A DNA stretch of 64,000 nucleotides from Calditrichota bacterium (GCA_008501735.1 QQUF01000043.1:1-64000); one strand, 5' to 3'. Numbered from the stretch's first letter, positions 5,971 through 60,266 are shown. Translations and numbers: made by a program. Notes: generated from the sequence alone by a model not told the origin.

Positions 5971-8355
5971 TTAGTTTGTCAAAATTTCAAATGAATTTGG
6001 TTGTAAGTCAATTTCCAGATTTCTAAGTTCACTTGCTTTTTCACGTCCCATAAATCCGTAAACAGAGCCAAAATTAGAGTTTAAAGGAACGCCTTTGAAC
6101 CTTTCAGGAACTTTGATTCTGATTTTACGACTTTTAGAATCTTTGTTAAAAGCAACAATTGAAATTTGGTCAAAGTAAGTCCTCGCAAAAACAAAAGTTT
6201 TGTCCGAACACTCCAAAATTTCTAAATCGCCGTAAATCAATTCAAGGTTTTCTTTACGAAGTTTTGTGATTTTTTTGGCAATTTCTTTGGTTTGTTGTTC
6301 TTCTTTCGTGAGATTTTTAAAACGCATTTGTCGTCTGTTGTCAGGGTCGCCAGCTCCAGCCATTCCGAATTCGTCTCCGTAATAAATCACAGGAATTCCC
6401 GGAATTGTGAAGGCAAAAGCCGTAAGTTGCGAGAGTTTTTTGTAACCAACTTTATCTTCGACTTTAATGTTTCGCTCCCAACCTGCTTCTTGTGAATCCT
6501 CGTCAAATTTCAAAGCTCCACTTGCGTAAGAAATAAATCTTGGAATGTCGTGATTTCCTGTAATATTTCCCATTAAAGAATGGCTTCCGTAGAAAGTCAA
6601 ACTTTCGTTTAACGAATTTTTGAGCCTTGAAAATGATTCGTTTTCAAGTGCAAAAACAGCTCTTGCATCGAAGTAAAGATTAAAATCAAACTGTCCGTCA
6701 AGCAATCCCGAATTTACGTAACTTCCGATAAGTTCACGACTTCCGAAAGTCTCGCCGATTTGGAAAAGATTTCGATTTTGTGGAATGCTTACTTCCTTCT
6801 TAATTTTTTTGGTCATTTCTCTCCAAAAGCTAATCGGAATGTGTTTCGTCGCATCGTGTCTGAAACCGTCAATTCCGTAAGTTTGAATCCAGTAAAGTGC
6901 CGAATCTGTCATCACCTCGGTAACTTTTGGGTTTGAGTAGTCAAGGCTTGGTAGGAAAGTGTCGAACCAAGTTGTTAGCCTTTGTTCGTCCCAAATTCTA
7001 ATATTTTTCTTGCCGTTTGGAAGGTCAAGTTTCGTCGCCCAATTTGGATTGTTTTGAAAAATCGGGTGTTCCTCGTGAACGTGATTTGAAACAAAGTCCA
7101 AAATCAAATTCATATTTTGAGAGTGAACAGTTTCAACTAATTTTTTCATTGAATTTGAGTCGCCGAATCGGTGGTCAACTTTTGACGAAGAAATGGGCCA
7201 ATAACCGTGATAACCCGAAAATTTTCTGTGTGGTTCAGGATACTCAACGTGAGCTTGAAGCGGATTTTGAGAAATCGGAGAAATCCAAACCGTAGAAATA
7301 TTTAGGTCTTTGAAGTAACCTTCTTTCGCCTTTTGTGTAATTCCGTCCAAATCTCCACCAAAATAATTTGCTTTTGGGTGAACTTCCGAGTCAACAACAG
7401 GCTCATCATTTTCTTTGTTGCCATTAAAAAATCTGTCAACTAACAAAAAGTAAAGAATCGTCGCCTCTTTGTCTCGACGCGTAATTTCAGATGAGGTTTT
7501 GAGAGTGTGTCCTTTGCTTAGTGGAATCAAAATGTCGTTTGAAGTTCCGTTTTTGTTTGAGGCGAAAACTCTGAGGAAAGAGCGGTCTAAAATTGTTGAC
7601 TCTCTTGGAATTGGGATTTCAATTTGGTTTAAATTTTGTGTAAAATTGGTAAGTTCAAAATTCTGCCAAAAGACTAAAACCTTGTCTAAATCCTGACTTT
7701 GCTCAAGAATAATTTTTCCATCTTTGGCTTCTTTTGTGAAAATTTTGGGAGCAGAGTCTTTTTTTTCACCAACTTGCAAAACTGAGTTGAAACCGCCGAT
7801 GTTGTTGTCCGCAGAATCAGGATTTGCAGGGTCAAGAAACCACTTTCCATCTGCTACAATTTGATAGTGATAATTTCCCGGGTCGAGCAAAAGTTTGGTT
7901 TCCCAAATTCCACCTTTATTTTGCATAGGAGAATTTTTTGGCGACCAATTGTTGAAAGCTCCTGCAACTTGCACAGTTTCGTAATTTTTACCTTTTGAGT
8001 CGAATGTAATTTTGTGAGAAATTTTACGAGATTTTTTCAAAAGTAAAGAATAAGGGATTCCGTCAACCCAAACTTTTGCGGTTGAAATTAAAGGAATTTC
8101 ACTACCATTTTCTTGTAAAGTCAGAATCTTTTTGTCTTTTGTAATTTCTTTTGAAAGTGAGTTTGGAATTTGAATTGAATCGATTTTGCTAACATCGGTA
8201 AAAAAATCTTCAAGATGAATTTCAGTTTCATTGGGATTCAAGGTAATAGGAGTTGCAAGACCAAAGATTCCATTTTCCATTTCTTGAGAAATTTCTTTTT
8301 CATTGCAAGAGGAAAATGTTGTAATTAGAATTAGAAAAAGTAAGATTAATTTCAT
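5971..8355 (-). CDS. GH13 alpha-amylase-family lipoprotein with AMPK-type glycogen-binding domain
   Basis: A 794-residue surface or periplasmic glycoside hydrolase. The N-terminus is a lipoprotein signal peptide with a Cys after TTFSS. An AMPK/CBM48-like module follows at about 105-200 (VQVAGAFNNWSP, then YHYQIVADGKW), as in cyclomaltodextrinase/neopullulanase-type enzymes. All four GH13 motifs are present: DFVSNH (420-425), GFRHD with nucleophile D501, GETFG with acid/base E535 and GNHD with D603. It should cleave alpha-1,4-glucans or maltooligosaccharides. It is first in a tight minus-strand run with csaA and the cysQ-like gene. A TonB receptor and a secreted protein with similar binding modules lie across the divergent promoter region. 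Confidence 0.93.
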   Translation of the reverse strand: MKLILLFLILITTFSSCNEKEISQEMENGIFGLATPITLNPNETEIHLEDFFTDVSKIDSIQIPNSLSKEITKDKKILTLQENGSEIPLISTAKVWVDGIPYSLLLKKSRKISHKITFDSKGKNYETVQVAGAFNNWSPKNSPMQNKGGIWETKLLLDPGNYHYQIVADGKWFLDPANPDSADNNIGGFNSVLQVGEKKDSAPKIFTKEAKDGKIILEQSQDLDKVLVFWQNFELTNFTQNLNQIEIPIPRESTILDRSFLRVFASNKNGTSNDILIPLSKGHTLKTSSEITRRDKEATILYFLLVDRFFNGNKENDEPVVDSEVHPKANYFGGDLDGITQKAKEGYFKDLNISTVWISPISQNPLQAHVEYPEPHRKFSGYHGYWPISSSKVDHRFGDSNSMKKLVETVHSQNMNLILDFVSNHVHEEHPIFQNNPNWATKLDLPNGKKNIRIWDEQRLTTWFDTFLPSLDYSNPKVTEVMTDSALYWIQTYGIDGFRHDATKHIPISFWREMTKKIKKEVSIPQNRNLFQIGETFGSRELIGSYVNSGLLDGQFDFNLYFDARAVFALENESFSRLKNSLNESLTFYGSHSLMGNITGNHDIPRFISYASGALKFDEDSQEAGWERNIKVEDKVGYKKLSQLTAFAFTIPGIPVIYYGDEFGMAGAGDPDNRRQMRFKNLTKEEQQTKEIAKKITKLRKENLELIYGDLEILECSDKTFVFARTYFDQISIVAFNKDSKSRKIRIKVPERFKGVPLNSNFGSVYGFMGREKASELRNLEIDLQPNSFEILTN

Positions 8356-8458
8356 TGAAGTTTAAATACCTAATTTTGTTGTGATTACCATAAACAATGG
8401 CTTACATTCCGAAAATTTTTTGAAAGTAACTATTTCAAAGTAAAAGAAAAGCAATTTT

Positions 8459-10105
8459 TTGAAGTCTCTTAAATATTTTTTCATAATTTTAGCATTAAGT
8501 TTTCAGTTTTGTTCTGAAGATAAAAGTTCCCCACACAAAGATTTTATCTTCGAGTCGAATTACGGCAAAGTTTCTACTAAAGCATTCGATGAACTTTACA
8601 CAACCTTCATTGCAAAATCTCCTTTTCAAGATACTTACGAATCTAAAGTTGAATTCTTAAGGCAAATTTATCTCAACAAGGGAATTGCCGAAAAAGCAAA
8701 GAATGAAAATACTCAGCTTACAGTACAAGATTCTGTTACTCTTGAATTCTACAAAATGAAATTGCTTACAGAGTTACTTTGGAAAAAGGAAATTGACGAG
8801 AAATTGCCCGAGCCAACTGAAACAGAAATTCGTGACACTTACAAACGAATGCATACAAAGCTCAAAGTTGGTAATATTTTTTCAACCCAAAAAGCTATCG
8901 TGGATTCAATTTCTGAAAAGATTAAAAGCGGTCAATTTACCTTCGAGGAAGCAGCAAAAGAGCATTACAAAAATTTAGATTCTACAATCGCTGCAAATGC
9001 TGGATTTGACAAATATTTTACTTTTGGTGAAATGGACTACGACTTTGAAGAAGTTGCTTACAAGCTCAAAAAAGATGAAGTTTCAGATGTTTTTCGTTCA
9101 TCTTACGGTTTTCATTTACTCAAATTAAAAAGTATCAAAGAAGATGCTTTCTTACAGGAATCGGATTTTCAACAACGGAGAGGCGACGTGGCAAATTCAT
9201 TCAAAAATCGTAGAAATAAAAATGAAACTGATAAATTTGTGAAAAAGCAGTTTGTTGAAAATGATGTGAGAGTTAAAACTAAAGTTCTTTTAAATCTTCG
9301 CGAGTATTTAAAACCTTATTTAAAAGGTGAGATTAATCCTGAAAGTTTACGTTTGAACTTGGGAATTGAGCAAGAGAATTCATTGATTTCTAAAAATGAT
9401 GTCTTGGCAAGTTTTGGTGGACAGGAACTTTCAGTTGAGGAATTTATGTTTTATTTACCGAACCTTTCACACAGAATTTTGAAAAGTAATTTTTTGAATA
9501 CCGTTGAAACTGTAATCGAATACAGAGTGCTTTCCAAAATGGCTATTGAAAAAGGTTTTGGTGATAACTTTGTTTTAAATGAAAAAGTTGAAATTGAAAA
9601 AGAACGAATGTTAAAGAATCGATTTTTTCAAAATGAATTTGCAAAAATTGACACGTCGAAAGAAGTTCTTGAAAACTTTTTTGAAAAAAATAAACATTTG
9701 TTTTCAAAAAATAATGATTTTGACTTTGTTCGTTTTACTTCTAAAAAAAGTTTGAACAAAGAACAGCTTGAAGACGAAAAGTTCTTATTTCGTAATAAAA
9801 ATCAAATAAAAATTGATACATTAAAATCCACTGGAATTAACCGCATTCCACTAATTCGCGATTCTGGTAAAGTGATTACTTTTAATGTCGGTGATTTTAT
9901 TGGTGAATTCTTTGACAAAGAGAAAAAAAAATATGTGAACTTTAAAGTACAAGCTCGAAACGAGATAACATTTCAAGAAAGTTATAAAGTTGTTAAGGAT
10001 TTGTTCTTTGAAATGCAGCTAAAAGATAAAAAAACGACGATTGAGCGTTTTACAGTGGCAAATGGTGAGCTAAAATTTTCTAAACAAAAGTTAGAAAAAC
10101 TTTAG
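8459..10105 (+). CDS. PpiC/SurA-like peptidyl-prolyl isomerase lipoprotein
   Basis: A 548-residue lipoprotein starting at a TTG; the signal peptide ends in LSFQFC, whose Cys would be lipidated. A parvulin-type domain lies at about 130-235, with GFDKYFTFGEMD and the closing SSYGFHLLKL strand typical of the family. The flanking helical regions resemble the chaperone parts of SurA/PrsA. The likely job is folding of exported or outer-membrane proteins. It sits just upstream of the TonB receptor and PorV-like genes on the same strand, which fits a role in assembling them. No ATG precedes the signal peptide, so the TTG start is the best choice. Confidence 0.85.
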   Translation: MKSLKYFFIILALSFQFCSEDKSSPHKDFIFESNYGKVSTKAFDELYTTFIAKSPFQDTYESKVEFLRQIYLNKGIAEKAKNENTQLTVQDSVTLEFYKMKLLTELLWKKEIDEKLPEPTETEIRDTYKRMHTKLKVGNIFSTQKAIVDSISEKIKSGQFTFEEAAKEHYKNLDSTIAANAGFDKYFTFGEMDYDFEEVAYKLKKDEVSDVFRSSYGFHLLKLKSIKEDAFLQESDFQQRRGDVANSFKNRRNKNETDKFVKKQFVENDVRVKTKVLLNLREYLKPYLKGEINPESLRLNLGIEQENSLISKNDVLASFGGQELSVEEFMFYLPNLSHRILKSNFLNTVETVIEYRVLSKMAIEKGFGDNFVLNEKVEIEKERMLKNRFFQNEFAKIDTSKEVLENFFEKNKHLFSKNNDFDFVRFTSKKSLNKEQLEDEKFLFRNKNQIKIDTLKSTGINRIPLIRDSGKVITFNVGDFIGEFFDKEKKKYVNFKVQARNEITFQESYKVVKDLFFEMQLKDKKTTIERFTVANGELKFSKQKLEKL

Positions 10106-10198
10106 GAATTTTTTATCAAAACATTTAAATTTGGCTTAGTTTTTGAATGAATTATTGTTACACGTAAGTAGTTTTGTAAACACAAACAGGAAAAATAA

Positions 10199-13150
10199 AT
10201 GAATAAACACTTATTAAGTTTTCTATTTCTCTTTAGTGTCTTATCGTTGTCCTTTGCAGGAACAACAGGTAAAATCTCCGGAAAAGTCATTGATAAATCC
10301 ACTGGAGAAGGCATAATTGGTGGAATTGTTCTTCTAGAAGGAACAACTTTTGGTGCTTCTACAGACGTTGAAGGGAATTATTTTATCCTTAGTGTGCCTC
10401 CTGGAAGTTATAATTTAAAAGCAAGTTCGATTGGTTATTCTGATGTCAAAATTGAAGGAATTAAAGTTTCAATTGACGTTACAACAAAACAAGACATCGC
10501 AATTTCAGAAGAGTCATTGCAAGTTGAAGAGGTTATAATTGTTGCTGAACAAGAACTTGTTCAAAAAGGTGTAACAGCAACAACTTCTTACCTTGATGCT
10601 GAATCAATCGAAAGTTCGCCTGTTGACGGAATTAGTGAACTTATTGAAATCGAAGCAGGAATTACAAAAGACTCTGGAGGTGGAATTCACATTCGTGGTG
10701 GAAGAACAGGAGAAGTTGCTTACTTGATTGATGGAGTTTCTGTTACAGACGTTTTCGACGGCGGACAAGCAGTTGAGCTTGAAGCAGGTTCAATTCAAGA
10801 ACTTCAAGTAATTACTGGAGCTTTTAACGCTGAGTACGGAAGAGCTCAATCAGGAGTTATCAACTCTGTCGCAAAAGTTGGTGGAAGTGATTACAACGGA
10901 GGTTTGCAAATTTTTACTGGTGATTATTTGACTGCTAACGATGATGTTTGGCAAAATGTTGATGATGTTACTCCTTTAGATAATTATTCAATTCAAGCAA
11001 ATATTGAAGGTCCAATTGTTCCTGGAAAAGTTACTTTTTATGCAAATGCTCGCTACAAAAAAGATGAAGGTTTTCTTTATGGGAAAAATACTTACAACCC
11101 TTGGGATGTTACTGTAAATGTTGATGAATTAAAAGATGCTGCAACAGGTAATGGAGCTCTTTTAAGAACAATTGATGAAAATGGTAATTTGGTTTCTCCC
11201 GATTCCGCTGGTTTAATTCCTGATACAACTGAGTCAGGTCTTTACTACATTGGGCAAAGTGGTGAAAATAAATTTGTCTCAATGAACAAAGGCGAAGATG
11301 TTTTTGTCTTAGGGAAACTTCAATGGGTAATTACTGGAAAAAGTAATCTTTCTTTCACAGGAATTTATGATTCTCAGAATTTTAATGATTGGGGTTCAGA
11401 TTATCTTTTAAATGCAGATGCAAGACCTACAAAAAAAGGTCACGGATTCACAAATATTCTTACTTACAATAATGCATTAAGTAATAGCACAATTCTGAAC
11501 ATTAAATTTTCTGCAATCAATAAAGTTTTTGATGAATACAATTACAAAGACCTTGACGACGACAGACATCTTTTCAATTATATGGTTAAACAAAGGTTTA
11601 AAGATAATTTCTTCACTGGAGGTGTCCCAAATAAAATCTTTGCAAGAGATACTAAGACCTTCAATTTTAAAAGTGATTTGGAATCGCAAATTAATAAGAA
11701 TCACTTAATCAAATTCGGCGGTGAGTTCACAACTCACGAAATTGATTATGATAATATTGAAACTGTTCCAAATTCACCTAATGGAAATTTATACAATGGG
11801 TTTGTGTGGGCAAATGAAGATGTTTCTGAATTTTATTGGGTTTTTGATACAGATGCGAGACAAGTAAATGATTTTTTAGAATCAGGTCGTGAATTCATCG
11901 ACCCAATTGCTCCAGGTTACGTTGACCAACTTCTCAGAAAAGATATTTGGAGAGATAAATACAACGTTAAGCCTCGTGAGTATTCCGCATTTATCCAAGA
12001 CAAAATCGAATACAATTTTATGACAATTAATGTCGGTCTCAGAATGGATATTTTTGACCCGAACAAAAAAGTTCCTAAAAATTTTAATGATGCAAATTTG
12101 GTAACTCAAGTTAGTTTTGATAGTGCTGACGTTGCTGACGGAAAAGCAAATTTATTGCTTGACCAAAAGACAGGCTTAATTCTACAAGACAATAGAGATG
12201 TCGAGTACAAAGATGCTTCTAAAAAAATTAATTTTAGCCCAAGACTTGGTGTTAGTTTTCCTGTCTCTAAAAATGGTTATATGAGTTTTTCTTACGGTCA
12301 TTTTGTTCAAACCCCAAGATTTTCAGACCTTTATTTAAATAGCTCTTATCGACCTGACAGAGATTTTATCGACGGAGCTTCTGAAACTATTGGAAATCCT
12401 GACCTTGAATTTGAAAAAACTGTTAGCTACGAAATTGGCTTCAAACAAGGAATTGGTGATAATTTAGCAGTCGGTTTGAACTTGTTTTACAGAGATGTAA
12501 AAAATCTCAAGGCAACTGATGATGTAGCAAATTCAGATGATACTCAAACTTACCAAGTCAACACAAACTCTGATTACGGAAACACAAAAGGGGTTCTTGT
12601 TAATTTTGAAAATCGTTTCGGCGATAACATCTTTGCAAGTATTGATTACACCTATTTGGTAACAACTGGAAGATTTACAAACGCAGATTACACTTACCCA
12701 CAAACTTCAAGTTTAGATTGGGACCAAACTCACACATTAAACTTTTTCGTAAGTTACGAACAATCTAGAGCTTGGGGTTCAAGTCTTATCGGCTCTTATG
12801 GTTCTGGTTATCCTTACGAACCACCAAGAAGAGAAGGAAATTCTATCGTTTTGAAAAATACTGAAAGAAAGCCTTCAACTCTTAACTTGGATTTTGAGGT
12901 TCATAAATATTTAAGAATTGGTAATTTGAATGCTACAGTTTTTGCAAAAGTTTTTAATCTTTTGGACACAAAAATTATCAAGAATGTTTTTTCTGATACG
13001 GGTGAACCGAACAGCACAGAAATTGATACAATTGACAGAGAAAATCACGACGAAGTTGTGAACTCAATTGATGAATACAGATTGAGAGAAGTTCCAACTC
13101 ATTACGAGCCACCAAGAAGAGTTCAATTTGGTGTAAAAATCAATTTCTAA
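10199..13150 (+). CDS. TonB-dependent receptor with carboxypeptidase-regulatory-like N-terminal domain
   Basis: A 983-residue outer-membrane receptor. A signal peptide ending near Ala20 is followed by a beta-sandwich domain (about 24-105) of the CarboxypepD_reg type seen in SusC/RagA proteins. Then come a TonB plug (about 115-215, with IRGGRTGEVAYLIDGV and GAFNAEYGRAQSGVIN) and a long beta-barrel ending in an aromatic C-terminal strand (QFGVKINF). No SusD partner follows; the neighbours are an exported 1238-residue protein and a PorV-like protein. The substrate is unknown. The nearby amylase and carbohydrate-binding-like repeats suggest oligosaccharides, but this is inferred from context. Confidence 0.92.
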   Translation: MNKHLLSFLFLFSVLSLSFAGTTGKISGKVIDKSTGEGIIGGIVLLEGTTFGASTDVEGNYFILSVPPGSYNLKASSIGYSDVKIEGIKVSIDVTTKQDIAISEESLQVEEVIIVAEQELVQKGVTATTSYLDAESIESSPVDGISELIEIEAGITKDSGGGIHIRGGRTGEVAYLIDGVSVTDVFDGGQAVELEAGSIQELQVITGAFNAEYGRAQSGVINSVAKVGGSDYNGGLQIFTGDYLTANDDVWQNVDDVTPLDNYSIQANIEGPIVPGKVTFYANARYKKDEGFLYGKNTYNPWDVTVNVDELKDAATGNGALLRTIDENGNLVSPDSAGLIPDTTESGLYYIGQSGENKFVSMNKGEDVFVLGKLQWVITGKSNLSFTGIYDSQNFNDWGSDYLLNADARPTKKGHGFTNILTYNNALSNSTILNIKFSAINKVFDEYNYKDLDDDRHLFNYMVKQRFKDNFFTGGVPNKIFARDTKTFNFKSDLESQINKNHLIKFGGEFTTHEIDYDNIETVPNSPNGNLYNGFVWANEDVSEFYWVFDTDARQVNDFLESGREFIDPIAPGYVDQLLRKDIWRDKYNVKPREYSAFIQDKIEYNFMTINVGLRMDIFDPNKKVPKNFNDANLVTQVSFDSADVADGKANLLLDQKTGLILQDNRDVEYKDASKKINFSPRLGVSFPVSKNGYMSFSYGHFVQTPRFSDLYLNSSYRPDRDFIDGASETIGNPDLEFEKTVSYEIGFKQGIGDNLAVGLNLFYRDVKNLKATDDVANSDDTQTYQVNTNSDYGNTKGVLVNFENRFGDNIFASIDYTYLVTTGRFTNADYTYPQTSSLDWDQTHTLNFFVSYEQSRAWGSSLIGSYGSGYPYEPPRREGNSIVLKNTERKPSTLNLDFEVHKYLRIGNLNATVFAKVFNLLDTKIIKNVFSDTGEPNSTEIDTIDRENHDEVVNSIDEYRLREVPTHYEPPRRVQFGVKINF

Positions 13151-13181
13151 ATGAAAATGAAAATTAGATTAGGTTTTTTAA

Positions 13182-16100
13182 ATGAATAAAAAAATATTAC
13201 TAAGTAGTTTAATTGTCTTGAGTTTTGGAATTGACTCTTATGCTCAAGATTTGGAACCTCCAGGAAATACTGATAATTTTGCCGCAAACGTTCACTCAGG
13301 AAACAAAGTTTCAACCAAATATTATAACAATGGTTTGGTTGGAAGAAATAGAGGTGAAGGTTTGGAAGTTTCAGGAATTTGGCCATCAGGAACTCCAAAT
13401 TCATATTTTGGAGATGTTGCTCCAGCAATCGGAGTAGAGTATGAGCCTTTTTATGAAGAAAACGGTCAATTAATTTATGGAACAAAAGGAATAAACGTTC
13501 CTGTTTCAAAAGGTCCAAGAATTGGAAGTTATCCAGAAGGTGGATTCTCAGCTTTGAGTGGTTATTTGAATACTTCAAAATCAGATTCTTTATCAATTGC
13601 AATGAGCCACTTGCCCGAAACTTATCCACAAGGTCCTTGGCCAGACCAACCAACTTGGGTTGATATTAATGGAAATACTCAATGGAATGGATTTTTTGGA
13701 CGTGATGTAAAAAATGCAGACCAAGAATCTTATTTTGTCTTTGATGATAATTTAGATGCAAGACCGAATGCTGAAGTTGACATTAATGGAACAATGGGCA
13801 AATACTTACCAAACCCTACAGAAGAGCCTGAAAGAAAAGGTCTTGGAATGTTGGTTCGAACAAGAGGGTTGCAATGGGCTCAAAGACTCGCACAAGACAA
13901 CATTTTTTGGCTTTATGAGATTACAAATACTTCTGAACACGATTGGGATAGAACTGTTTTTGGAATGGTTGTTGGAACTCTCGTTGGTGGTGAAGGTGAC
14001 TCAAATGACGATTTAGCTGAGTTCAGACTTGGTGAAGAAATTACTTATTCAGAAGATGTTGACGATGACACTGATGCTCCTTGGGTGAATGTAAGTTCAA
14101 CAAGAAAAATTGGAGTTGTTGGTTACGCATTTCTTGAAGCTCCTGGAAACCCAGTTGACGGAATTGACAATGATGGAGATAGTGTTGACCCAAACACTCC
14201 AACTTTTACAATCGCAGATTTTGACACAAATACTTTTACAGCTTGTGAAAAGTTAGTCGGAGACGGAAATGGAAATGTGGTTTTAATTACAGAAATTGGA
14301 CAAGGTCAGGACAAAACTTTAAGCCGAGAAATTATCACACTTCCACAAACTGGTGAGATTCAAGTTGTAACTCACGGTGAAACTTTTACAATTTCAAGAA
14401 ATACAATTGCTTGTGAAATTGCAAACGACCAATTGGACAACGATTTTGACGGTTTGATTGACGAGTCTTTCGAGATACATTTTGACAAAAGAATTTTTAG
14501 TGGAGAAACTCCTTCGAAATACATCAATTACTTCACAGGAGAAGGTTTAAGTGATTTGTTGGTTGATGAAAGAAGAGACGATGACATTGACAATGACGGA
14601 GATTGGACAAATGACGACGATGTTGGAACAGATGGTTTAGGTCCTGCTGACCCAGGTTATCCTGGACCGGATTTTGGTGAAAGTGACGGAATTCCAACTT
14701 CTGGAGAGCCTCATTTTGATAAAACTGACATCACAGAATCTGACCAAATTGGTTTAACGAGTTTTGACCTTTTTAAATCAAGTGATATTTTTATGTCTCA
14801 AGCCCAAGCACTTTGGGACGCAATGGAACCAGGATTTTTCGATGAAAATGTTGGTGTTCCTGATGATTGGGATTTTCTTTACGGAGCTGGTTTTGCACCG
14901 TTAAACTCAAAAAGAATTAACAGATTTTCAGTTTCTTTGCTTTACGGAGAAACTCCTGCTGACATTAGAAGAAACAAAGATGTAGTACAGAGAATTTATG
15001 ACGAAAATTATCAATTTGCTCAAGCTCCAATAAAGCCAACTCTTTGGGCTTATCCGGGAAATGGGAAAGTTACACTTTATTGGGATAGAGTTTCGGAAGA
15101 ATCTTACGACTCTTTTTTTGAAACTAACGACTTTCAAGGTTACAAACTTTACCGTTCAACAGACCCGAACTTTAGAGATGTTTTTACAGGAACTGATGCT
15201 TTTGGCTCAAAAACTTTCAACATTCCGATTGCTCAATGGGATAAAATTGACGGAACTGAAGGAGTTTCACCTTACGTGGATAACACAGGAACAGGCTTTT
15301 ATCTTGGAGATGACACAGGTTTGACTCACTCTTTTGTTGATTCAGGTTTAGTAAATGGAATCACTTATTATTACGCACTAACTGCTTACGATGTTGGAGG
15401 CGAAGTTGAAGGTTTGGTAATCCCACCAACAGAGAATTCAATTTCTATTAGTGCAATTGATGGTGTAATTATTACTCTTGACAAAAACACAGTTGTTGTA
15501 ACTCCAAACCAACCAAGTCCAGGTTTTGAAGAAGCAGAAATTAGCGAATTAGTTCATACTCAAGGAACTTCTTCAGCAGAAGTGATTGCAAAGGTTTTGA
15601 ACAGTTTCCAATACACAGAAGACAGAACTTACAGATTTGAATTTTACTCTTGGGAATCTGATGAACTTGATAATGATTTGGACTGGAAAAGATGGGTGGA
15701 TTTAAATGCAAATGACGTTTATGATTTCGGAGTTGACCAAGCCTTTGATGACATCGGTTCTGACGGAAACGAAAGTACTTTTGATGCTGACGGAACTCAA
15801 GGAAATGGGAGACCAGATTCAGGTGAACCAAATATTGATGAAAATGACCCTGATGAATCTGATTTAAAGGCGTATTTTACAACTTCTGCTTTTTCTGTTT
15901 ATGAAATTAATGGAAATGAAATTGATACAATTTTTTACAAAAATACAGATGTTCCGAATATTCTTGAAAGCACAGAAAATAAAGTTGATTTCATTAATGG
16001 AATGGAATTTTACGTTAGAAATCCAAGTCAAGTTGATTATGACCCAATTGCATCAGGTTGGGAAATTCCTTACGATTCAAGTATGACGATTAGTGCTTCT

Positions 16101-16898
16101 TTGTTCCTTAGCGGAGGTTTGCTTGGAACAAGACTTTCTTATGACTACTCAATTGAATTTGGCGTTAAAGATTCTTCGATTGCTTTTGGTGCGACAATTC
16201 AATCAAAAGAAACGAACTTCAAAATTCGAAACATAGATTTAGGTACAGACGCAGAATTCATTTTCATCGAAAATGTTGATACACTCTACACAAGTTCTGG
16301 AGAAATTGATTATGCAAAAAGTAATTTAGAGGGTGAATTTGATAATGGCGACAGAATTATTTTGCAAGATGTAAATCCAGTAAATGGAGCAACTGAGTTA
16401 TCTTGGTTTTTTAAATCATTCTTAAGTGCGACAAAAGAAATTAGACCTGAAGTTGGGGAAAAATGGTTTTTTAAAACTAAAAAACCTCTTCACGGAGGAG
16501 GTGCAAGTAGAGTTGATGTTGGCGATGTTTATGAAATCACAATCAAAAAATCTGATGTCGATTCGGAAATTGCCAAAAATAGTTTAGATGCAATCAAAGT
16601 TGTTCCAAATCCATACGTAGCAAATTCGATTTTTGATAAACCACATATTGAAAGAAGTATTGGTCGTGAAAGACGAATTCGTTTTACTCATCTTCCCAAA
16701 AAAGCGACAATTAGGATTTTTAATCTTCGAGGTGAATTAGTTCAAACATTGAATCACGATTCGACAGCCGAAGATGGTGACCAAGAGTGGAATTTAAGAA
16801 ATAGAAACAACCAAGATGTTGCTTTCGGGCTTTACTTTTATCACGTTGATGCTCCTGGTGTTGGTGAGAAAAAAGGTAAGTTCGCTCTAATCAAATAA
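13182..16898 (+). CDS. Large exported protein with fibronectin-III-like region and non-canonical C-terminal sorting-like domain
   Basis: A 1238-residue protein with a signal peptide (cleavage near SYAQ, about residue 22). Aspartate-rich stretches such as DDDIDNDGDWTNDDD (about 465-480), also seen near 325 and 875, resemble calcium-binding thrombospondin-3 or dockerin loops. A fibronectin-III-like segment lies around 615-740 (YKLYRST, then ITYYYALTAYD). The last 90 residues (VVPNPYVANS, then IRIFNLRGELVQTL and GLYFYHV) have the FlgD-like/T9SS C-terminal plan, but with VPNPY instead of NYPNPFNP. It sits between the TonB receptor and the PorV-like gene and probably functions with them at the cell surface. 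No enzymatic domain was recognised. Confidence 0.75.
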   Translation: MNKKILLSSLIVLSFGIDSYAQDLEPPGNTDNFAANVHSGNKVSTKYYNNGLVGRNRGEGLEVSGIWPSGTPNSYFGDVAPAIGVEYEPFYEENGQLIYGTKGINVPVSKGPRIGSYPEGGFSALSGYLNTSKSDSLSIAMSHLPETYPQGPWPDQPTWVDINGNTQWNGFFGRDVKNADQESYFVFDDNLDARPNAEVDINGTMGKYLPNPTEEPERKGLGMLVRTRGLQWAQRLAQDNIFWLYEITNTSEHDWDRTVFGMVVGTLVGGEGDSNDDLAEFRLGEEITYSEDVDDDTDAPWVNVSSTRKIGVVGYAFLEAPGNPVDGIDNDGDSVDPNTPTFTIADFDTNTFTACEKLVGDGNGNVVLITEIGQGQDKTLSREIITLPQTGEIQVVTHGETFTISRNTIACEIANDQLDNDFDGLIDESFEIHFDKRIFSGETPSKYINYFTGEGLSDLLVDERRDDDIDNDGDWTNDDDVGTDGLGPADPGYPGPDFGESDGIPTSGEPHFDKTDITESDQIGLTSFDLFKSSDIFMSQAQALWDAMEPGFFDENVGVPDDWDFLYGAGFAPLNSKRINRFSVSLLYGETPADIRRNKDVVQRIYDENYQFAQAPIKPTLWAYPGNGKVTLYWDRVSEESYDSFFETNDFQGYKLYRSTDPNFRDVFTGTDAFGSKTFNIPIAQWDKIDGTEGVSPYVDNTGTGFYLGDDTGLTHSFVDSGLVNGITYYYALTAYDVGGEVEGLVIPPTENSISISAIDGVIITLDKNTVVVTPNQPSPGFEEAEISELVHTQGTSSAEVIAKVLNSFQYTEDRTYRFEFYSWESDELDNDLDWKRWVDLNANDVYDFGVDQAFDDIGSDGNESTFDADGTQGNGRPDSGEPNIDENDPDESDLKAYFTTSAFSVYEINGNEIDTIFYKNTDVPNILESTENKVDFINGMEFYVRNPSQVDYDPIASGWEIPYDSSMTISASLFLSGGLLGTRLSYDYSIEFGVKDSSIAFGATIQSKETNFKIRNIDLGTDAEFIFIENVDTLYTSSGEIDYAKSNLEGEFDNGDRIILQDVNPVNGATELSWFFKSFLSATKEIRPEVGEKWFFKTKKPLHGGGASRVDVGDVYEITIKKSDVDSEIAKNSLDAIKVVPNPYVANSIFDKPHIERSIGRERRIRFTHLPKKATIRIFNLRGELVQTLNHDSTAEDGDQEWNLRNRNNQDVAFGLYFYHVDAPGVGEKKGKFALIK

Positions 16899-16911
16899 GG
16901 AATTTCAAAAT

Positions 16912-17934
16912 ATGAATAAAGTTATTAAAACATTAGTCGGTGGATTAATCTTAAGTTTTGGAGCTACAAACTTGTTTGCACAGAGTAACGTCGGTACAAC
17001 TGCGGCAACATTTTTAACAATTGACCCAAGTCCAAGAGCTGTTGGAATGGGCGGAGCTTTTTCCGCAATTTCTGACGACGCTTCTGCTCCTTATTGGAAT
17101 GTTGCGGGAATAGCGAGTTTCAAACAAGCTCAATTTCAAGTAACTAAGATTAATTATCTCGTCGGAACAGATTTAGTTTACGCTTCTGGAGCAGTTCCAA
17201 TGGGAGAAAAAGGAGTCATTGGAGTTTCATTACTGACTTTTGATTCTGGCGACATCGAAATTACAACTCATCAAGAACAAGAAGGTACTGGAAAAACTTT
17301 TAAAGTTAAAGACAGTGCATTTGCTATAAATTATGGTTACATAATTACAAACAGATTTCAATTTGGAGTAACTGCAAAATTTATTTCAACTGAAATTGCT
17401 GCAACAGAGGCTTCAACTTTTGCATTGGACTTTGGCGGAAAATTTACTGCTGATTTTTTAAATTTAAGATTAGGATTTGTGATTAACAATTTCGGTGGAA
17501 AAATGCAACTTACAGGTAATGACTTAACAAGACCATTTGATGGTTATGAAAATTCCACTGGTCACGACGAGTTCGTTCCTGTAAATTATCAAACAGGTGA
17601 ATTTGACATTCCACTTTTATTTAGATTTGGAATTGCAATTGACCCTTTAAAAACTGAATGGAATCGGTTAACAGTTTCTTCTGATGCACTTCATCCAAAT
17701 GACCAAGATGTTAGTGTTAGTTTTGGTTCAGAATATGCTTTTCGTGAAATGTTTTTCGCAAGAGCAGGTTACAACTCACTTTTCGAAGGTGATACAGAAG
17801 AAGGATTTACATTTGGTTTCGGTGTAAAATATAAGGTTGCCAAAAGTGCAACTTTTGCTTTAGATTATGCTTTTAAGGATTACGGTTTACTCGGTAATTC
17901 TACTTTTTGGAATATTTCACTAATCTTTAATTAA
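16912..17934 (+). CDS. PorV/PorQ-family outer-membrane protein
   Basis: A 340-residue protein with a signal peptide ending at about LFAQ. The characteristic start of the PorV/PorQ (UPF0164) family follows: FLTIDPSPRAVGMGGAFSA, then a short ASAPYWNVAGIA segment. The rest alternates short beta strands to a final aromatic strand, as expected for a FadL-like barrel. In T9SS, PorV shuttles cargo proteins to the sortase at the outer membrane. It is the third gene of the TonB-secreted protein-PorV-cargo run and starts 13 bases after the previous stop. It may be a cassette-specific paralogue rather than the main PorV. Confidence 0.85.
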   Translation: MNKVIKTLVGGLILSFGATNLFAQSNVGTTAATFLTIDPSPRAVGMGGAFSAISDDASAPYWNVAGIASFKQAQFQVTKINYLVGTDLVYASGAVPMGEKGVIGVSLLTFDSGDIEITTHQEQEGTGKTFKVKDSAFAINYGYIITNRFQFGVTAKFISTEIAATEASTFALDFGGKFTADFLNLRLGFVINNFGGKMQLTGNDLTRPFDGYENSTGHDEFVPVNYQTGEFDIPLLFRFGIAIDPLKTEWNRLTVSSDALHPNDQDVSVSFGSEYAFREMFFARAGYNSLFEGDTEEGFTFGFGVKYKVAKSATFALDYAFKDYGLLGNSTFWNISLIFN

Positions 17935-17949
17935 ACAAAGGAGATAATA

Positions 17950-19377
17950 ATGTTCTCTTTATTAAAAAAAACTGGAGTAGCTGGACTTTCAGTACTCGCA
18001 TTATCAGCTAGCGTTTATGCTGCTGATGTAACATTTTCTGTTGATATGAGTGTCCAACAAACACTTGGAAATTTTGACCCTGCAAACGATTTGGTCGTTG
18101 TTAGAGGTGATATGAATGCTTGGGGAGGAAATGCTGAGCAATTAATGGATCCTGATAATGATATGATCTATGAAGGGACTTTCACTATTGATGAAGTTGC
18201 TTTACCAATGCCTGAATACAAATTTGTAAATGTTGTTGGTGGAACAGCAGATTCTTGGGAAACAGTTGCAAATAGAACTGTTGATATTTCTGGTGGTGGA
18301 ACAGTTGTAATTCCAACAGTATTTTTTGATGATAATGCTGGTGGTGGAGTTGACGCAGATATTACATTTCAATGTGATATGAGTGTTCAAACTTCTGTTG
18401 GTAACTTTAACCCTGCAAATGGTGACAAAATCGTTGTAAGAGGTTCTTTCAATGGTTGGGGTGGAGCAGCTGATGAACTTTTTGAAGATGTTCTCACTGG
18501 AATCCACACAGCAACCGCTACAATTAATGCAACAGCTGGAACAACAGTAGAGTACAAATTCGTTCACTTAGTACCAGATGGAGCAGGTGGATTTGTTGAT
18601 GGTTGGGAATCAGTTCAAAATAGAACTTTTGTTTTTGACGGAAATGCTCAAACATTACCTGTAGTTTATTTTGATGATATTACTCCTAATGATATTATTA
18701 CTCAAGCAGTTACAGTTACTTTTCAAGTTGATGTAACAAATGCAATGGATTTTAACGGAGGAACTCCAATTCCTTTCCAAAGTATTGATAATGTTTACAT
18801 TGCTGGTTTCTTTAATAACTGGCCTTGGGACGCTTTTACTGATCCAGATTGGGAAATGCACGATGACGGAGTTGCTCCTGATATGGTTGCAGGTGATATG
18901 ATTTACACAACTAATATTACTTTTGACCAAGGTTCTGGAAAAGAACAACAATATAAATTCTCAGTAAATGGTCCTGACAACGAAACAGGAATTGGTGATA
19001 ACCACATTATCTTAATTGATGATACAAATCCAACAATGGTTAACGCTGTTGATATGTTTGGTGTTGTTGTAGATGTTGAAGAAAATTCAAATCCTGGTGT
19101 AATTGAAACAAGCATTCTTGCTTCAAATTACCCAAACCCTTTTAACCCAACAACTTCAATTGAATTTAAAGCTGACCAAGTTGCTCCAGCTCAAATCTCA
19201 ATTTTCAATGTTTTAGGTCAAGAAATCAATTCATTTGATTTAGGCGTTACTAATAGTGGAAATGTAGTTTGGAACGGTACTGACTTTAACAACACTCCTG
19301 TAAGTTCAGGAATTTACTTCTACCAAGTAAACGTTGGAAAAGCTCAAAAAATCGGAAAAATGACACTTCTCAAATAA
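17950..19377 (+). CDS. T9SS type A cargo with three glycan-binding-like repeats
   Basis: A 475-residue secreted protein with a GGAG ribosome binding site and a signal peptide to about Ala24. Three related domains follow, at about 25-125, 135-245 and 255-375. Each starts with a (V/I)TF-(S/Q)-(V/C)DM/DV strand, has a G-(D/S/F)-x-N-x-W motif (RGDMNAWGG, RGSFNGWGG, AGFFNNWPW), and continues with a YKF strand. This is the plan of starch/glycogen-binding modules (CBM20/CBM48-like). The C-terminal 80 residues are a clear sorting domain (NYPNPFNPTTSIEF, then GIYFYQV and KMTLLK). No catalytic domain is present, so a surface binding protein is likely. The carbohydrate assignment is inference. Confidence 0.85.
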   Translation: MFSLLKKTGVAGLSVLALSASVYAADVTFSVDMSVQQTLGNFDPANDLVVVRGDMNAWGGNAEQLMDPDNDMIYEGTFTIDEVALPMPEYKFVNVVGGTADSWETVANRTVDISGGGTVVIPTVFFDDNAGGGVDADITFQCDMSVQTSVGNFNPANGDKIVVRGSFNGWGGAADELFEDVLTGIHTATATINATAGTTVEYKFVHLVPDGAGGFVDGWESVQNRTFVFDGNAQTLPVVYFDDITPNDIITQAVTVTFQVDVTNAMDFNGGTPIPFQSIDNVYIAGFFNNWPWDAFTDPDWEMHDDGVAPDMVAGDMIYTTNITFDQGSGKEQQYKFSVNGPDNETGIGDNHIILIDDTNPTMVNAVDMFGVVVDVEENSNPGVIETSILASNYPNPFNPTTSIEFKADQVAPAQISIFNVLGQEINSFDLGVTNSGNVVWNGTDFNNTPVSSGIYFYQVNVGKAQKIGKMTLLK

Positions 19378-19396: not shown

Positions 19397-19433
19397 AAGG
19401 CGGAAATCTTTTTATGGTTTTCCGCCTTTTTTT
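19397..19433 (+). terminator. Rho-independent terminator closing the TonB/PorV cassette
   Basis: A perfect 10-bp stem, AAGGCGGAAA (19397-19406) against TTTCCGCCTT (19419-19428), is followed by a T run to 19433. It lies 20 bases beyond the stop of the last cassette gene. Confidence 0.9.
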
Positions 19434-23240: not shown

Positions 23241-24734
23241 TTATTCTCTAATTTTTACCATCTTGACTTCATCAATGTAGTTTGTGAAATTTGGGTCTTC
23301 TAATTCATTAAGAGATTGTAATACATCCGAAATCCTATCAATTGATTTTCGCATTGAAAAAGCTATTTTTTCAAGTCTTTGAGGATTGAGATTACTTTCT
23401 ATTTCAGATTGCAATAATCCTACATTACCTAAAAGTACAGTAAGCGGTTGGCTGATTTCATGGTTTGCTGTTACCACCGTTGCTAGATACATTGATTTTC
23501 TTTCAGCATCAACCAACTTATTTTGAGTGCTCACCAACTTTTCATTCATATTTACAAGTTCAATATTTTTCAAACGATAAAGTTCAGTCTCAAACTTCGC
23601 TTGCATTCCTGCAATTGATTTTTCCTTATCATTTGTAAAAATAATCTCTCTCAAGTCGGCAAACTTCTTTTGAAAAATAAATGCTTTTTCATAATCCTTA
23701 GTTTTATAAAATAGATTTGAAAGTGATTTGTAAATTTCAATTAATTCAGGTTTAACATCAATTTCGACGGCAATTTCCATTGCCTCTTTCAAACCATTAA
23801 TTGCTTGAGTCAGGTTGCCTTCTTTTTCGTTAATTTCGGTTAAATCTCTTATTGCTCTAACTAGTTCATACTTTGTATTGGTTTCTCTTGTAACCTGAAT
23901 AACATTTTCAAAATAATTTCTGGCTTTAGCGAGATTACCTAATTGTGAGTAAATTTCACCTAAATTAATAAGTGTGTGTGAAATTCCTCTTTGGTCATTT
24001 AGTTGAATTTTTAATTTTAAAGCTGTTTCAAAACAATCTATAGATTCTTGGAACTTCTCTTGGTGTCTAAAAATTACGCCAATATTATTTGAAGCAAAAG
24101 ATTCAAGGAAAATATCAGATATATCTCGAGCCATTTTTCTCGTTCTTTGGAAAAAGTCCAAGGCTCTTTCAAAATTATCAGCTTGAAAATAAGAGATACC
24201 AATATTGTTAAGTGAAGAAGCTATCAAAAATTTATCACCTAATTTTTCATTTAACTCTAATGCTTTAAAATTTGCTTTCATTGTTCCGTCAAAATTTCCT
24301 AAATCATAGTAGCATTTTCCAATTGCGTGCAAACATTTTGAAATTCCTTGACTGTAATTTAGCCTTTTAAAAATTTTATATGCTTTAAAATGATTTTCCA
24401 ATGCAGTATGATATTTTGCACTTACGCTGTTAATTACGCCTTTTTGGAAAATCGCTTTTCCGAGCTCCAATTTCATTTTATTTTCAGAAGCTACGGAAAT
24501 AGAAGCTAAATTATATTTTAAAGATTCTTCAAGTTCCGTTAGCCGTGCAAGAGCAATCGAAGTTTTGTGCAAAGCATTAAAATGTAGTTTCGGGAAGTTT
24601 GTAATTTCTTCAAATTCTAATGCCTTTTTAGAAAATTCAAGACATTTTTTAGGAGAGTTTCTTAATTCTTCTTCTGCAAAATCAATATTTTTTTTACACT
24701 CTTCAAGTGCATAATTTTGAGGTATTTTAGGCAT
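23241..24734 (-). CDS. TPR protein ending in a histidine-kinase dimerisation (DHp) domain without ATPase domain
   Basis: A 497-residue cytoplasmic protein. Residues about 40-380 are tandem tetratricopeptide repeats (for example ALENHFKAYKIFKRLNYSQG and ALDFFQRTRKMARDI). A coiled-coil linker at about 385-415 leads to ANHEISQPLTVLLGN with H425, which looks exactly like the phosphoacceptor helix of HisKA domains. The protein ends about 70 residues later, so the HATPase domain is absent and there is no following frame that encodes one. It could be phosphorylated in trans, or act as a dimerising scaffold. It is transcribed divergently from the permease gene. Confidence 0.8.
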   Translation of the reverse strand: MPKIPQNYALEECKKNIDFAEEELRNSPKKCLEFSKKALEFEEITNFPKLHFNALHKTSIALARLTELEESLKYNLASISVASENKMKLELGKAIFQKGVINSVSAKYHTALENHFKAYKIFKRLNYSQGISKCLHAIGKCYYDLGNFDGTMKANFKALELNEKLGDKFLIASSLNNIGISYFQADNFERALDFFQRTRKMARDISDIFLESFASNNIGVIFRHQEKFQESIDCFETALKLKIQLNDQRGISHTLINLGEIYSQLGNLAKARNYFENVIQVTRETNTKYELVRAIRDLTEINEKEGNLTQAINGLKEAMEIAVEIDVKPELIEIYKSLSNLFYKTKDYEKAFIFQKKFADLREIIFTNDKEKSIAGMQAKFETELYRLKNIELVNMNEKLVSTQNKLVDAERKSMYLATVVTANHEISQPLTVLLGNVGLLQSEIESNLNPQRLEKIAFSMRKSIDRISDVLQSLNELEDPNFTNYIDEVKMVKIRE

Positions 24735-30641: not shown

Positions 30642-31928
30642 ATGAAAAAATATCCAAATTACAAAGATTCAGGCGTTGAATGGCTTGGCGAAATTCCCGA
30701 ACATTGGGAAGCGAAAAAGTTGAAGTTTTCAGATTTAGTAATTATGGGACAATCACCTGATTCTAAGGACTACAACACTGAAAAGAAAGGTTTTCCCTTT
30801 TTACAAGGAAATGCTGATTTTCAGGAAGTTTTTCCAAGTCCAAGAATTTGGTGTGAAAATGTTAGAAAGATGGCAAATGAAAACGATATTTTACTTTCTG
30901 TTAGAGCACCAATCGGAGCGGTAAACATTGCAAATGAAATTTATGGAATTGGTCGTGGGTTAAGTGCAATTCGTTCAAAGAACTCATTTCAAAATATCTT
31001 TATTACTTGATTTTATCTTCGGAAGATGAGCTAAATAGCTTAGGAACTGGTTCAACTTACAAAGCTATTTCAGTTAGTATTGTTGAAAATACTTCAATTT
31101 CTCAACCACCACTTTCCGAACAAGAAGCAATCGCAAACTACCTTGACGAAAAGACGGCGAAAATTGATTTGTTGGTTGAGTTGAAGAAAAAACAAATCGA
31201 ATTGCTCAAAGAACAACGCACAGCACTAATTAACCAAGCAAGTTACCAAAGGTTTAAATCCAAACGCAAAAATGAAAGATTCAGGCATTGAATGGCTCGG
31301 CGAAATCCCCGAACATTGGGAAAAAGTTAAAGTGAGTCACTACATTTATTTACGACATGGATTTCAATTTAGAGATTATGATTTTACAGACTTTGGGTGT
31401 AAAATTATTAAAATTTCTCAACTTCTACCCTCAGGGAAATTGGATTTAGAAAATTGCGATACAATTGATTCAAATAGAATTTCAAACTTTGAGGAAATTG
31501 TAATTAGGAATGGTGATGTTTTAATGGCTTTGACTGGAGGAACAATCGGAAAAGTTGTTAAGGCAAATGGAGTAAAAGAAATTATTTTACAAAATTATCG
31601 TGTCGGGAATTTCTTCCCTAAGGATATTAATTTAATTTCAAAAGAATTTATTTTTTGGATAATGAAATCAGAATTACTTTTTGCACAAATTAATTTTGCA
31701 CAAAGAGAAACTGGGCAACCGAACATTGGGAAAGAAGATTTTCGCGATATGTTTTTTGCTCTTCCATCACCTCCAGAACAAGAAACGATTGCGAATTACC
31801 TTGACGAAAAGACAGCGAAAACTGACGATTCAATTTCCAAAGCAGAAAGCCAAATTGAATTTTTGAAAGAATATAGAACGGCTTTGATTTCCGAAGCAGT
31901 TACAGGCAAAATTGATGTTAGGGGTTGA
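30642..31928 (+). pseudogene. hsdS: Type I restriction specificity subunit hsdS, two frameshifts
   Basis: Both halves of a specificity subunit are present: each starts with KDSG(V/I)EWLGEIPEHWE, the second near 31272, and ends in a helix with EQE(A/T)IANYLDEKTAK. The frame breaks at about 31000, where restoring one T would give NIFYYLILSSEDEL, and at about 31240, where one extra A separates NQA from VTKGLNPNAK. With both corrected, a single full-length HsdS results. As it stands only the second half (31272-31928, 218 residues) is an intact frame, and it could yield a half-subunit. With hsdM and hsdR destroyed, function is unlikely. Confidence 0.88.
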
Positions 31929-50016: not shown

Positions 50017-50034
50017 ACTTGAAAATCCTCCCAA

Positions 50035-58820: not shown

Positions 58821-60266
58821 CTATTTCAAAAGAAGCATTTTGCTTACTTGAGTTTCATTTCCAGTAGTGATTTTGTAAAAATAAACACCAGAAGGAACTA
58901 AAGAATTATTTTCGTCTGTTCCATTCCAAGAAATTTGATTTGAGCCTTCTTTTGCAATTTCATTTTCTGCAAGAACTTTTACTGATTGCCCAAGAACGTT
59001 GAAAATTTCGATACTGAATTTCGCCTGTTCAGGAACTGAAAATTCAATAGTTGTTTCAGGGTTGAATGGGTTAGGGAAGTTACCTAACAAAGTAAAATCC
59101 TTTGGAAGTGGTGAAAAAACTATAAAAATTGTTGCAGGTTTATCCTTATGTTTTGTCTCTTTTCCATTAAAATCAACGTCGGCGACAATATATGAATAAT
59201 TTGTATGTGAGGCTAACCCCTGATTATCGTAGAAAAAATAATCATTTCCAAAAGGGGTACTTCCTTGACCTTTTAGAGTTTTGTCAGTCCTAAAGTCAGC
59301 AATCATTTCATAAGCCTTAGCTTCAAATTTTCTTCGATAAATTCTAAACCCAGCATTGTTATGTTCTGTTTCTGTTCTCCAATCTAATCTGACATTGTTT
59401 CCTTGTTGACGAGCAGTGAACGAACTTAATTCAACGGGAAGGGAATGATCTCCTGTTGTATGAAAAGGACCACCTGAATTAGGATTTGAACTAAAATCTG
59501 CATCATCTCCTAAGTTAGAACCTCCAGGATCTCCAGGAATTGTTTCATTAGATGAGAATCCAGTCGAGTTTGTAATTAAAACAAACATATTTACAGTTTG
59601 AGAATTATCAATACCTGGCATTGCATCATAATCAAAACGAACTTCAATTCCTTGGTCTGCTCCACCACCGTTATTATAAGCAATTTGGATACCATTAGCA
59701 GAAATACCCGAAGTAGTAGTATTAGGAATGTTTGAAGCAGTTCCAGATTGGTTGCAACTTAAACCTGAACCATTATTTAAGAATCCAGAATCAATAATCG
59801 GGTCTCCAGAACCACCAGTTCCAAATCTTGCTGCATCAACGAAAAATTGTGTAGTTCCATTACCTTCATTAAAAGCGAAAGCGTAATCAACTTCAAAGTC
59901 CATTCTGCAACCACTTCCAGATGTATTAGTAAAACCACTTCCACCAAATACTCCAGAAGCTCCACTTTCTCCTACAGGATTTCCGCTGTCATTTCCATCA
60001 TAACCTGAGAAATCAAAAAATAATACAATATTATCGTTTGAACCTAAATCACAAGGAATACCAATGTACATATGAGTTAAATCTGCGAAATAATTAATTT
60101 CATCAATATTGTTACCTGAACCAAATCCATCTCTTCCACTTGTGTAACTTGCGATTACAGTGTAATCGCCATCACTTGAGTCTCCATCAATTGTTGGAGT
60201 TGCAAAGAGATTACTAAATATTGTTATTGAGCTAAGAGCTAATAATGCTGGTAAATTTTTTTTCAT
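58821..60266 (-). CDS. T9SS type A cargo protein
   Basis: Start at the ATG at 60266, after GGAGAAAA, giving a signal peptide (LPALLALSSITIFSNLFA); 481 residues. The N-terminal half (about 30-270) is glycine/asparagine-rich with beta character (YIGIPCDLGSNDNIVLFFDF, then YDAMPGIDNS). A PVELSSFTARQQGNNVRLDW joining segment with HNNAGFRIYRRK follows, as in many FCB cargo proteins. The end is the sorting domain (LGNFPNPFNPETTIEF, GVYFYKI, KMLLLK). No enzymatic domain was recognised. Confidence 0.85.
   Translation of the reverse strand: MKKNLPALLALSSITIFSNLFATPTIDGDSSDGDYTVIASYTSGRDGFGSGNNIDEINYFADLTHMYIGIPCDLGSNDNIVLFFDFSGYDGNDSGNPVGESGASGVFGGSGFTNTSGSGCRMDFEVDYAFAFNEGNGTTQFFVDAARFGTGGSGDPIIDSGFLNNGSGLSCNQSGTASNIPNTTTSGISANGIQIAYNNGGGADQGIEVRFDYDAMPGIDNSQTVNMFVLITNSTGFSSNETIPGDPGGSNLGDDADFSSNPNSGGPFHTTGDHSLPVELSSFTARQQGNNVRLDWRTETEHNNAGFRIYRRKFEAKAYEMIADFRTDKTLKGQGSTPFGNDYFFYDNQGLASHTNYSYIVADVDFNGKETKHKDKPATIFIVFSPLPKDFTLLGNFPNPFNPETTIEFSVPEQAKFSIEIFNVLGQSVKVLAENEIAKEGSNQISWNGTDENNSLVPSGVYFYKITTGNETQVSKMLLLK

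What the first reader, a model, noticed from the sequence alone, without database searches (positions are those of the whole stretch)
5971..19377. Possible SusD-less alpha-glucan system using TonB and T9SS parts
A lipoprotein GH13 amylase with an AMPK-type glycogen module is divergent from a block encoding a PPIase, a SusC-like receptor, a 1238-aa exported protein, a PorV-like protein and a T9SS cargo with three CBM20/48-like repeats. The arrangement suggests surface capture and uptake of starch-like glycans without SusD. TonB-large exported protein-PorV cassettes also seem to recur in FCB genomes for other purposes, so the link to glycans depends on the repeats.
Basis: inference. Interest (0 to 1): 0.65.

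Follow-up and report, generated by a model that had tools for sequence, protein, structure and literature searches.

The report
SusD-less starch-uptake operon using T9SS parts
A bacterial operon appears to catch and import starch-like sugars with a TonB-powered channel and a giant, previously unnamed exported protein in place of the usual SusD lid; the same channel, giant protein and PorV-type barrel recur in dozens of uncultured bacterial genomes beside different sugar-digesting enzymes.

Summary
In detail: a GH13 lipoprotein with an AMPK-type glycogen module is divergent from a tight block PPIase–TonB receptor–1238-aa protein ("BIG")–PorV-family barrel–T9SS cargo, closed by a terminator. The cargo has two CBM20 repeats with an intact binding site 1 and a divergent third repeat. 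Comparative genomics supports the alpha-glucan reading more strongly than the window alone. BIG belongs to a large family with no Pfam domain and no PDB relative. Almost every BIG lies in a receptor–BIG–PorV unit. In the window's BIG clade (27 members) all 21 loci that can be judged have the CBM20-like cargo next, often with LacI, GH13, a T9SS-exported GH13, a glycan phosphorylase or a sugar symporter. Other BIG clades sit with GH94, GH29/GH43 or GH1/CBM9, so the unit looks like a general glycan-uptake cassette whose enzymes follow the BIG clade. SusD was not found in six relevant genomes or in any cassette. That BIG acts as the SusD-like lid or capture partner is inference; both structure predictions failed. 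I judge it a new variant of a known kind (TonB/PUL glycan uptake), with an uncharacterised protein family at its core.

The parts
5971..8355 (-). GH13 lipoprotein amylase with AMPK-type glycogen-binding module (SusG-like role)
   Evidence: Pfam Alpha-amylase 1.5e-48, AMPK1_CBM 4e-12; triad D501/E535/D603; lipobox-like SSC at the N-terminus; divergent neighbour of PPIase-receptor also in G001
8356..8458 (.). 103-bp divergent intergenic region between amylase and block (probable promoters)
   Evidence: promoter function not tested
8459..10105 (+). Parvulin-type PPIase lipoprotein, PrsA/SurA-like, TTG start
   Evidence: Rotamase 1.3e-13; orthologue beside receptor in G001; PPIase genes recur in other BIG cassettes
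10199..13150 (+). SusC-like TonB-dependent receptor with CarboxypepD_reg N-terminal extension
   Evidence: orthologues next to BIG
13182..16898 (+). BIG: 1238-aa exported protein; conserved W/D-rich N-terminal region, Fn3-like region about 620-745, T9SS-like tail
   Evidence: weak CHU_C only; family alignments A1, A3; no PDB relative; no other Pfam in 31 members
16912..17934 (+). PorV/PorQ-family outer-membrane barrel (proposed dedicated carrier/anchor)
   Evidence: PF19572 8.1e-11; NF033709 204.6 bits
17950..19377 (+). T9SS cargo: CBM20 repeat 1 (residues 25-130), CBM20 repeat 2 (136-247), divergent repeat 3 (252-372), T9SS type A sorting tail (394-471) (SusE/F-like role)
   Evidence: PF00686 6.2e-7, PF18962 4.6e-8; TIGR04183 33.1 bits, cut-off 23; repeat alignment A6 and PDB CBM20 matches
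19398..19430 (+). Intrinsic-terminator-like stem (GGCGGAAA...TTTCCGCC) and T run closing the block
   Evidence: sequence read

Best explanation
This is an alpha-glucan (starch/glycogen/maltodextrin) capture and uptake locus that works like a Sus system without SusD. Proposed working: the GH13 lipoprotein cuts the glucan; the T9SS-exported CBM20 cargo holds starch or glycogen at the surface (SusE/F-like); oligosaccharides enter through the TonB receptor. The 1238-aa BIG protein is exported, is kept at the outer membrane by the neighbouring PorV-type barrel, and sits with the receptor as its extracellular capture partner in the place SusD has elsewhere. Shown: the gene set, domains, intact CBM20 and GH13 residues, absence of SusD, T9SS presence, recurrence of the receptor-BIG-PorV unit, and its alpha-glucan neighbours across phyla. 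Inferred: surface location, export of BIG, glycan transport, and BIG as lid. I put about 0.85 on the alpha-glucan link, about 0.7 on uptake through this receptor, and about 0.4 on BIG being a physical lid.
For: Cargo repeats match CBM20 of glucoamylase, STBD1 and CGTases; nearly all PDB matches are starch-binding proteins. 17 of 25 related cargos match Pfam CBM_20, others CBM53, CBM48, AMPK1_CBM. BIG clade of 27 (SH-aLRT 99): 21 of 21 assessable loci have the cargo after PorV. Full locus in G053, another phylum: LacI-GH13-receptor-BIG-PorV-cargo-T9SS GH13-SSF symporter; similar in L116 (with a glycan phosphorylase) and L120. In G001 the receptor and PPIase again lie divergent from the amylase. 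Receptor directly upstream of BIG in 41 of 44 loci, PorV downstream in 38 of 43; the three upstream exceptions are a split locus and two with PorV in between. BIG distances track receptor distances best (r 0.947, against 0.855 for BIG-PorV). SusD absent in all six genomes tested; BIG in 77 of 82 genomes of the G053 phylum, SusD in 30 of 82 and never on the contig of the fetched alpha-glucan cassettes. SprA present in 5 of 6.
Against: No binding, expression or transport data. The receptor fails the SusC/RagA family cut-off (64.2 against 368 bits). The BIG tail is only a sub-threshold T9SS signal. Both structure predictions failed (pLDDT 33 and 28), so no lid geometry could be tested. In G001 the BIG-PorV-cargo and receptor-PPIase-amylase parts lie on different contigs. 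No LacI regulator is next to the window block. Receptor-exported protein-PorV cassettes without visible glycan genes exist in the same genome (C28, C11). Operon partners co-evolve anyway, so the distance correlation is weak evidence for contact.
Confidence: 0.7

Rival explanations
1. BIG is not a lid but a glycan-active enzyme or a stand-alone surface glycan-binding protein of an undescribed family; the receptor works alone or with another partner.
For: Many invariant Asp/Glu/Trp residues in the N-terminal half; BIG clades follow the enzymes of the locus; no known fold to say otherwise.
Against: BIG sits with the receptor across loci with GH13, GH94, GH29/43 and GH1, which suits an uptake partner better than one enzyme activity; closest tracking is with the receptor.
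Confidence: 0.3
2. The receptor-BIG-PorV unit is a general envelope or adhesion module and its neighbourhood with amylases is incidental; the receptor imports something else.
For: Similar receptor-large protein-PorV cassettes in the same genome have no glycan genes nearby (C28, C11); some paralogous units have no recognised enzyme neighbour (L145, L148, L152).
Against: 21 of 21 assessable clade members keep the CBM20-like cargo, with LacI in 16 of 27 and GH13 in 9 of 27 loci across many families.
Confidence: 0.12
3. The amylase is a separate unit that only happens to be divergent from the block.
For: Opposite strand; in several clade loci no GH13 lies within about 8 kb.
Against: The divergent arrangement with PPIase-receptor is kept in G001, GH13 is next to the receptor in G053, and GH13 is about 12 kb from the block in G059.
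Confidence: 0.1
4. The system only senses or adheres to starch granules (TonB transducer plus adhesin) and does not import.
For: T9SS-exported CBM proteins can serve adhesion; no transport data.
Against: Relatives encode SSF symporters, LacI regulators and a glycan phosphorylase in the same locus, which fit uptake and catabolism.
Confidence: 0.08

Closest known systems
Starch utilization system (SusCD and SusEFG) of Bacteroides and outer-membrane utilisomes (PMC7618045)
   Same: TonB receptor with N-terminal extension, surface glucan-binding protein with several CBMs, surface GH13 lipoprotein, one locus per glycan, paralogous expansion with other enzymes
   Different: No SusD; receptor fails the SusC/RagA model; binding protein is a T9SS cargo, not a lipoprotein; BIG and a PorV-type barrel are added; LacI regulators in relatives
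BtuB-BtuG vitamin B12 uptake (PMC10404256)
   Same: Precedent for a TonB receptor with a stable surface lid that is not SusD
   Different: BtuG is a lipoprotein for a small molecule; BIG is about 1200 aa, T9SS-type, glycan-associated, with no detectable sequence relation to a solved protein
T9SS type B substrate with dedicated PorP/SprF shuttle (PMC12618676, PMC9143113)
   Same: Large T9SS substrate encoded next to its own outer-membrane barrel, which carries it out and can hold it at the surface
   Different: Barrel here is PorV/PorQ family rather than PorP/SprF; linked to a TonB receptor and glycan genes
T9SS translocon carrier PorV (PMC10994853)
   Same: Family of the barrel; PorV binds the substrate tail and pulls it out of SprA
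   Different: The window protein is below the PorV equivalog cut-off and lies in a nutrient operon
Chitin utilization locus of Flavobacterium johnsoniae (PMC5127042)
   Same: T9SS export combined with TonB glycan uptake in one locus (own knowledge; the paper was listed, not read in detail)
   Different: Uses SusCD pairs

Membership tests
Sus-type polysaccharide utilization locus | SusC/RagA family receptor (TIGR04056) | tested here: not met
   64.2 bits against cut-off 368.25
Sus-type polysaccharide utilization locus | SusD gene beside the receptor | tested here: not met
   No SusD_RagB in the genome; no SusD among the block's proteins; other SusD Pfam models not searched genome-wide
Sus-type polysaccharide utilization locus | Surface amylase and glucan-binding proteins in the locus | tested here: met
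   GH13 with AMPK1_CBM; cargo with CBM20 repeats; surface location itself not shown
Sus-type polysaccharide utilization locus | TonB-dependent transport of the glycan | not testable with these tools
   needs uptake assay
T9SS substrate (cargo 17950-19377) | T9SS type A sorting domain | tested here: met
   PF18962 33.7 bits (cut-off 27), TIGR04183 33.1 (cut-off 23)
T9SS substrate (BIG) | T9SS sorting domain | tested here: inconclusive
   CHU_C 18.8 bits, cut-off 27; 14 of 31 family members match CHU_C at 0.01; conserved tail in alignment
T9SS organism | SprA translocon in the genome | tested here: met
   SprA_N 6.8e-38 in G000
PorV/PorQ family (NF033709) | Score over curated cut-off | tested here: met
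   204.6 bits, cut-off 90
T9SS PorV proper (NF033710) | Score over equivalog cut-off | tested here: not met
   90.7 bits, cut-off 250
CBM20 (cargo repeats 1 and 2) | Pfam CBM_20 over cut-off and site 1 residues W, K, W, E, N | tested here: met
   29.6 bits, cut-off 23.3; residues at 58/91/103/104/108 and 170/203/219/220/224; aligned with solved CBM20s
CBM20 (cargo repeat 3) | Site 1 W-E-x3-N-R | tested here: not met
   Motif absent; instead invariant W291, W293, D343, N344, E345 in 25 relatives
GH13 | Pfam Alpha-amylase and catalytic triad | tested here: met
   166.6 bits; D501, E535, D603

The most novel reading that the evidence does not exclude
A whole uptake paradigm: in uncultured phyla that share T9SS, an expanded family of about 1200-aa T9SS-exported proteins, each with its own PorV-type anchor, replaces SusD as the partner of TonB glycan receptors, with many copies per genome tuned to different glycans.
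Probability: 0.4. Interest if true: 0.88.

Novelty: new variant of a known kind. Interest (0 to 1): 0.7.

Why it matters
SusCD is the textbook route for glycan uptake in Bacteroidota. A parallel arrangement that couples TonB receptors to T9SS-exported giants and PorV-type barrels would explain how uncultured, T9SS-bearing phyla eat polysaccharides with few or no SusD genes, gives a role to a large protein family with no Pfam domain, and offers a genomic marker (receptor-BIG-PorV) for finding their glycan loci.

Tried and rejected
A profile of 31 BIG sequences found no solved relative. Literature searches for a SusD-less TonB/PorV glycan system found none; the library lacks most subscription papers. 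Naming the phylum failed: the one named relative is 'bacterium isolate SJ803'. Considered and dropped: that the amylase adjacency is chance (kept in G001 and G053).

Full report
What is there. The window is a 64-kb piece of contig C7 of a 4.14-Mb genome. The five plus-strand genes are separated by 93, 31, 13 and 15 bases and followed by a terminator-like stem and T run, so they are probably one transcription unit. The GH13 gene is divergent across 103 bases. It keeps the catalytic triad, carries an AMPK1_CBM module and begins like a lipoprotein.

The cargo. Pfam finds one CBM_20 stretch and a T9SS tail. I aligned repeats 1 and 2 with those of relatives and searched solved structures with the profile: the matches are almost all starch-binding CBM20 domains (STBD1, glucoamylases, many CGTases; best E 0.0034, so modest one by one but consistent), and the W-E-x3-N-R motif aligns with theirs. 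Both repeats hold the residues of CBM20 site 1 (W58/K91/W103/E104/N108; W170/K203/W219/E220/N224; site assignment from own knowledge of glucoamylase). Repeat 3 lacks that motif but is the most conserved unit among 25 related cargos, with invariant W291, W293, D343, N344, E345. Of those 25, 17 match CBM_20 (best 8.1e-20) and others CBM53, CBM48, AMPK1_CBM or the glucan water dikinase domain.

The 1238-aa protein (BIG). It has no Pfam domain but a weak T9SS tail and no relative of known structure. It has an Fn3-like stretch and several Asp-rich D-x-D-G-D loops by eye. Relatives exist in the same family (71% identity) and in other phyla (about 35-42%). In the phylum of G053, 77 of 82 genomes hold BIG relatives at E <= 1e-40, with up to 19 matching stretches per genome. 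Four of five genomes in the phylum of G059 do as well.

The unit. In loci fetched around high-scoring BIG genes, a TonB receptor lies directly upstream in 41 of 44 and a PorV-family barrel downstream in 38 of 43; most exceptions are split loci, contig-limited or have the order receptor-PorV-BIG. BIG distances follow receptor distances (r 0.947) more closely than PorV distances (0.855); since all are operon partners this shows common descent, not contact.

The link with alpha-glucans. On a tree of 47 BIG proteins the window falls in a clade of 27 with SH-aLRT 99 (quick LG+G4 tree, some long branches). In 21 loci of that clade the sequence after PorV can be judged, and in all 21 the cargo of the window's kind follows (in L116 it is broken into two frames and in L125 cut by the contig end). 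LacI genes lie upstream in 16 of 27; GH13 genes are found in 9 of 27 loci although most stretches are 20 kb or less and several are cut by contig ends. Examples: G053 has LacI, GH13, receptor, BIG, PorV, cargo, T9SS-exported GH13 and SSF symporter in a row; L116 adds a glycan phosphorylase, L120 has GH13 with AMPK1_CBM, a T9SS GH13 and an SSF symporter. G059, outside the clade of 27, has receptor-BIG-PorV-cargo and a GH13 about 12 kb away. The loci were picked by BIG score, not at random, and clade members are related, so these counts are not independent events.

Other BIG clades. They sit with a GH94 phosphorylase (L151), a fucosidase with GH43 similarity (L146), a large GH13 with glucodextranase-like module (L143), and in G033 with LacI and proteins that look like GH1 and CBM9 by reading. 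PPIase genes of the window's kind recur in L138, L142, L143, L144, L149 and L150. This is the pattern of a general glycan cassette whose enzymes change with the clade.

SusD. PF07980 has no match in the window genome or five other genomes with cassette parts, while the Bacteroides control rings. In the G053 phylum 30 of 82 genomes have some SusD, one to five copies, on contigs other than those of the fetched alpha-glucan cassettes. The receptor is far below the SusC/RagA cut-off. SprA is present, so T9SS export is possible.

Mechanism. Precedents: PorV binds the substrate tail and draws it out of SprA (PMC10994853); substrates paired with their own neighbouring barrel depend on it for secretion (PMC12618676) and may stay bound to it (PMC9143113); TonB receptors can use a lid that is not SusD (BtuG, PMC10404256); and Sus components form one complex (PMC7618045). 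I therefore propose that BIG is exported, held by its PorV-type barrel and works as the receptor's capture partner, with the CBM20 cargo as SusE/F-like glucan holder and the GH13 lipoprotein as surface amylase. The PPIase may help fold these outer-membrane proteins. Export, location, contact and transport are inferred. Structure prediction, the obvious test, failed for lack of alignment depth.

Known or new. I found no description of such a system in the held papers, which is not proof of absence. As a kind it is TonB-dependent, PUL-like glycan uptake; it is not a Sus system by membership because two defining features were tested and not met. I call it a new variant of a known kind, with an undescribed protein family at its centre.

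Noticed in passing
window 23241-24734 (-); L060 10516-11844: A TPR protein with a HisKA-like end lies downstream of the block; in G001 a related protein (29% identity) sits between the PPIase and the receptor, hinting at a regulatory link.
   Followed up: partly
G000:C28 (L029 6520-13663), G000:C11 (L031 5576-12698): Two more receptor-large exported protein-PorV cassettes in the same genome without recognisable glycan genes nearby; their substrates are unknown.
   Followed up: partly
L024 8975-15188 and L060 7465-15982 (G001): The orthologous system is split: BIG-PorV-cargo on one contig, receptor-PPIase-amylase on another.
   Followed up: yes
L077 6923-9979 (G000:C1) and L064 616-5106 (G001:C21): A second alpha-glucan set: T9SS-tailed GH13 of about 1020 aa, in G001 next to another CBM20-like protein with no tail found.
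   Followed up: partly
window 30642-31928 (+): Pieces resembling a type I restriction specificity subunit (one with Methylase_S) next to a DUF2779/Cas4-like protein and an AlbA_2 protein; looks like a remnant or odd defence region.
   Followed up: no
window 47215-50034 (-) and 58821-60308 (-): Two further T9SS-tailed exported proteins of unknown function.
   Followed up: no
window 18703-19065 (cargo repeat 3): The non-CBM20 repeat has the strongest conservation of the cargo (W291, W293, D343, N344, E345 invariant in 25 relatives): possibly a new glucan-binding site or a BIG/receptor contact.
   Followed up: partly
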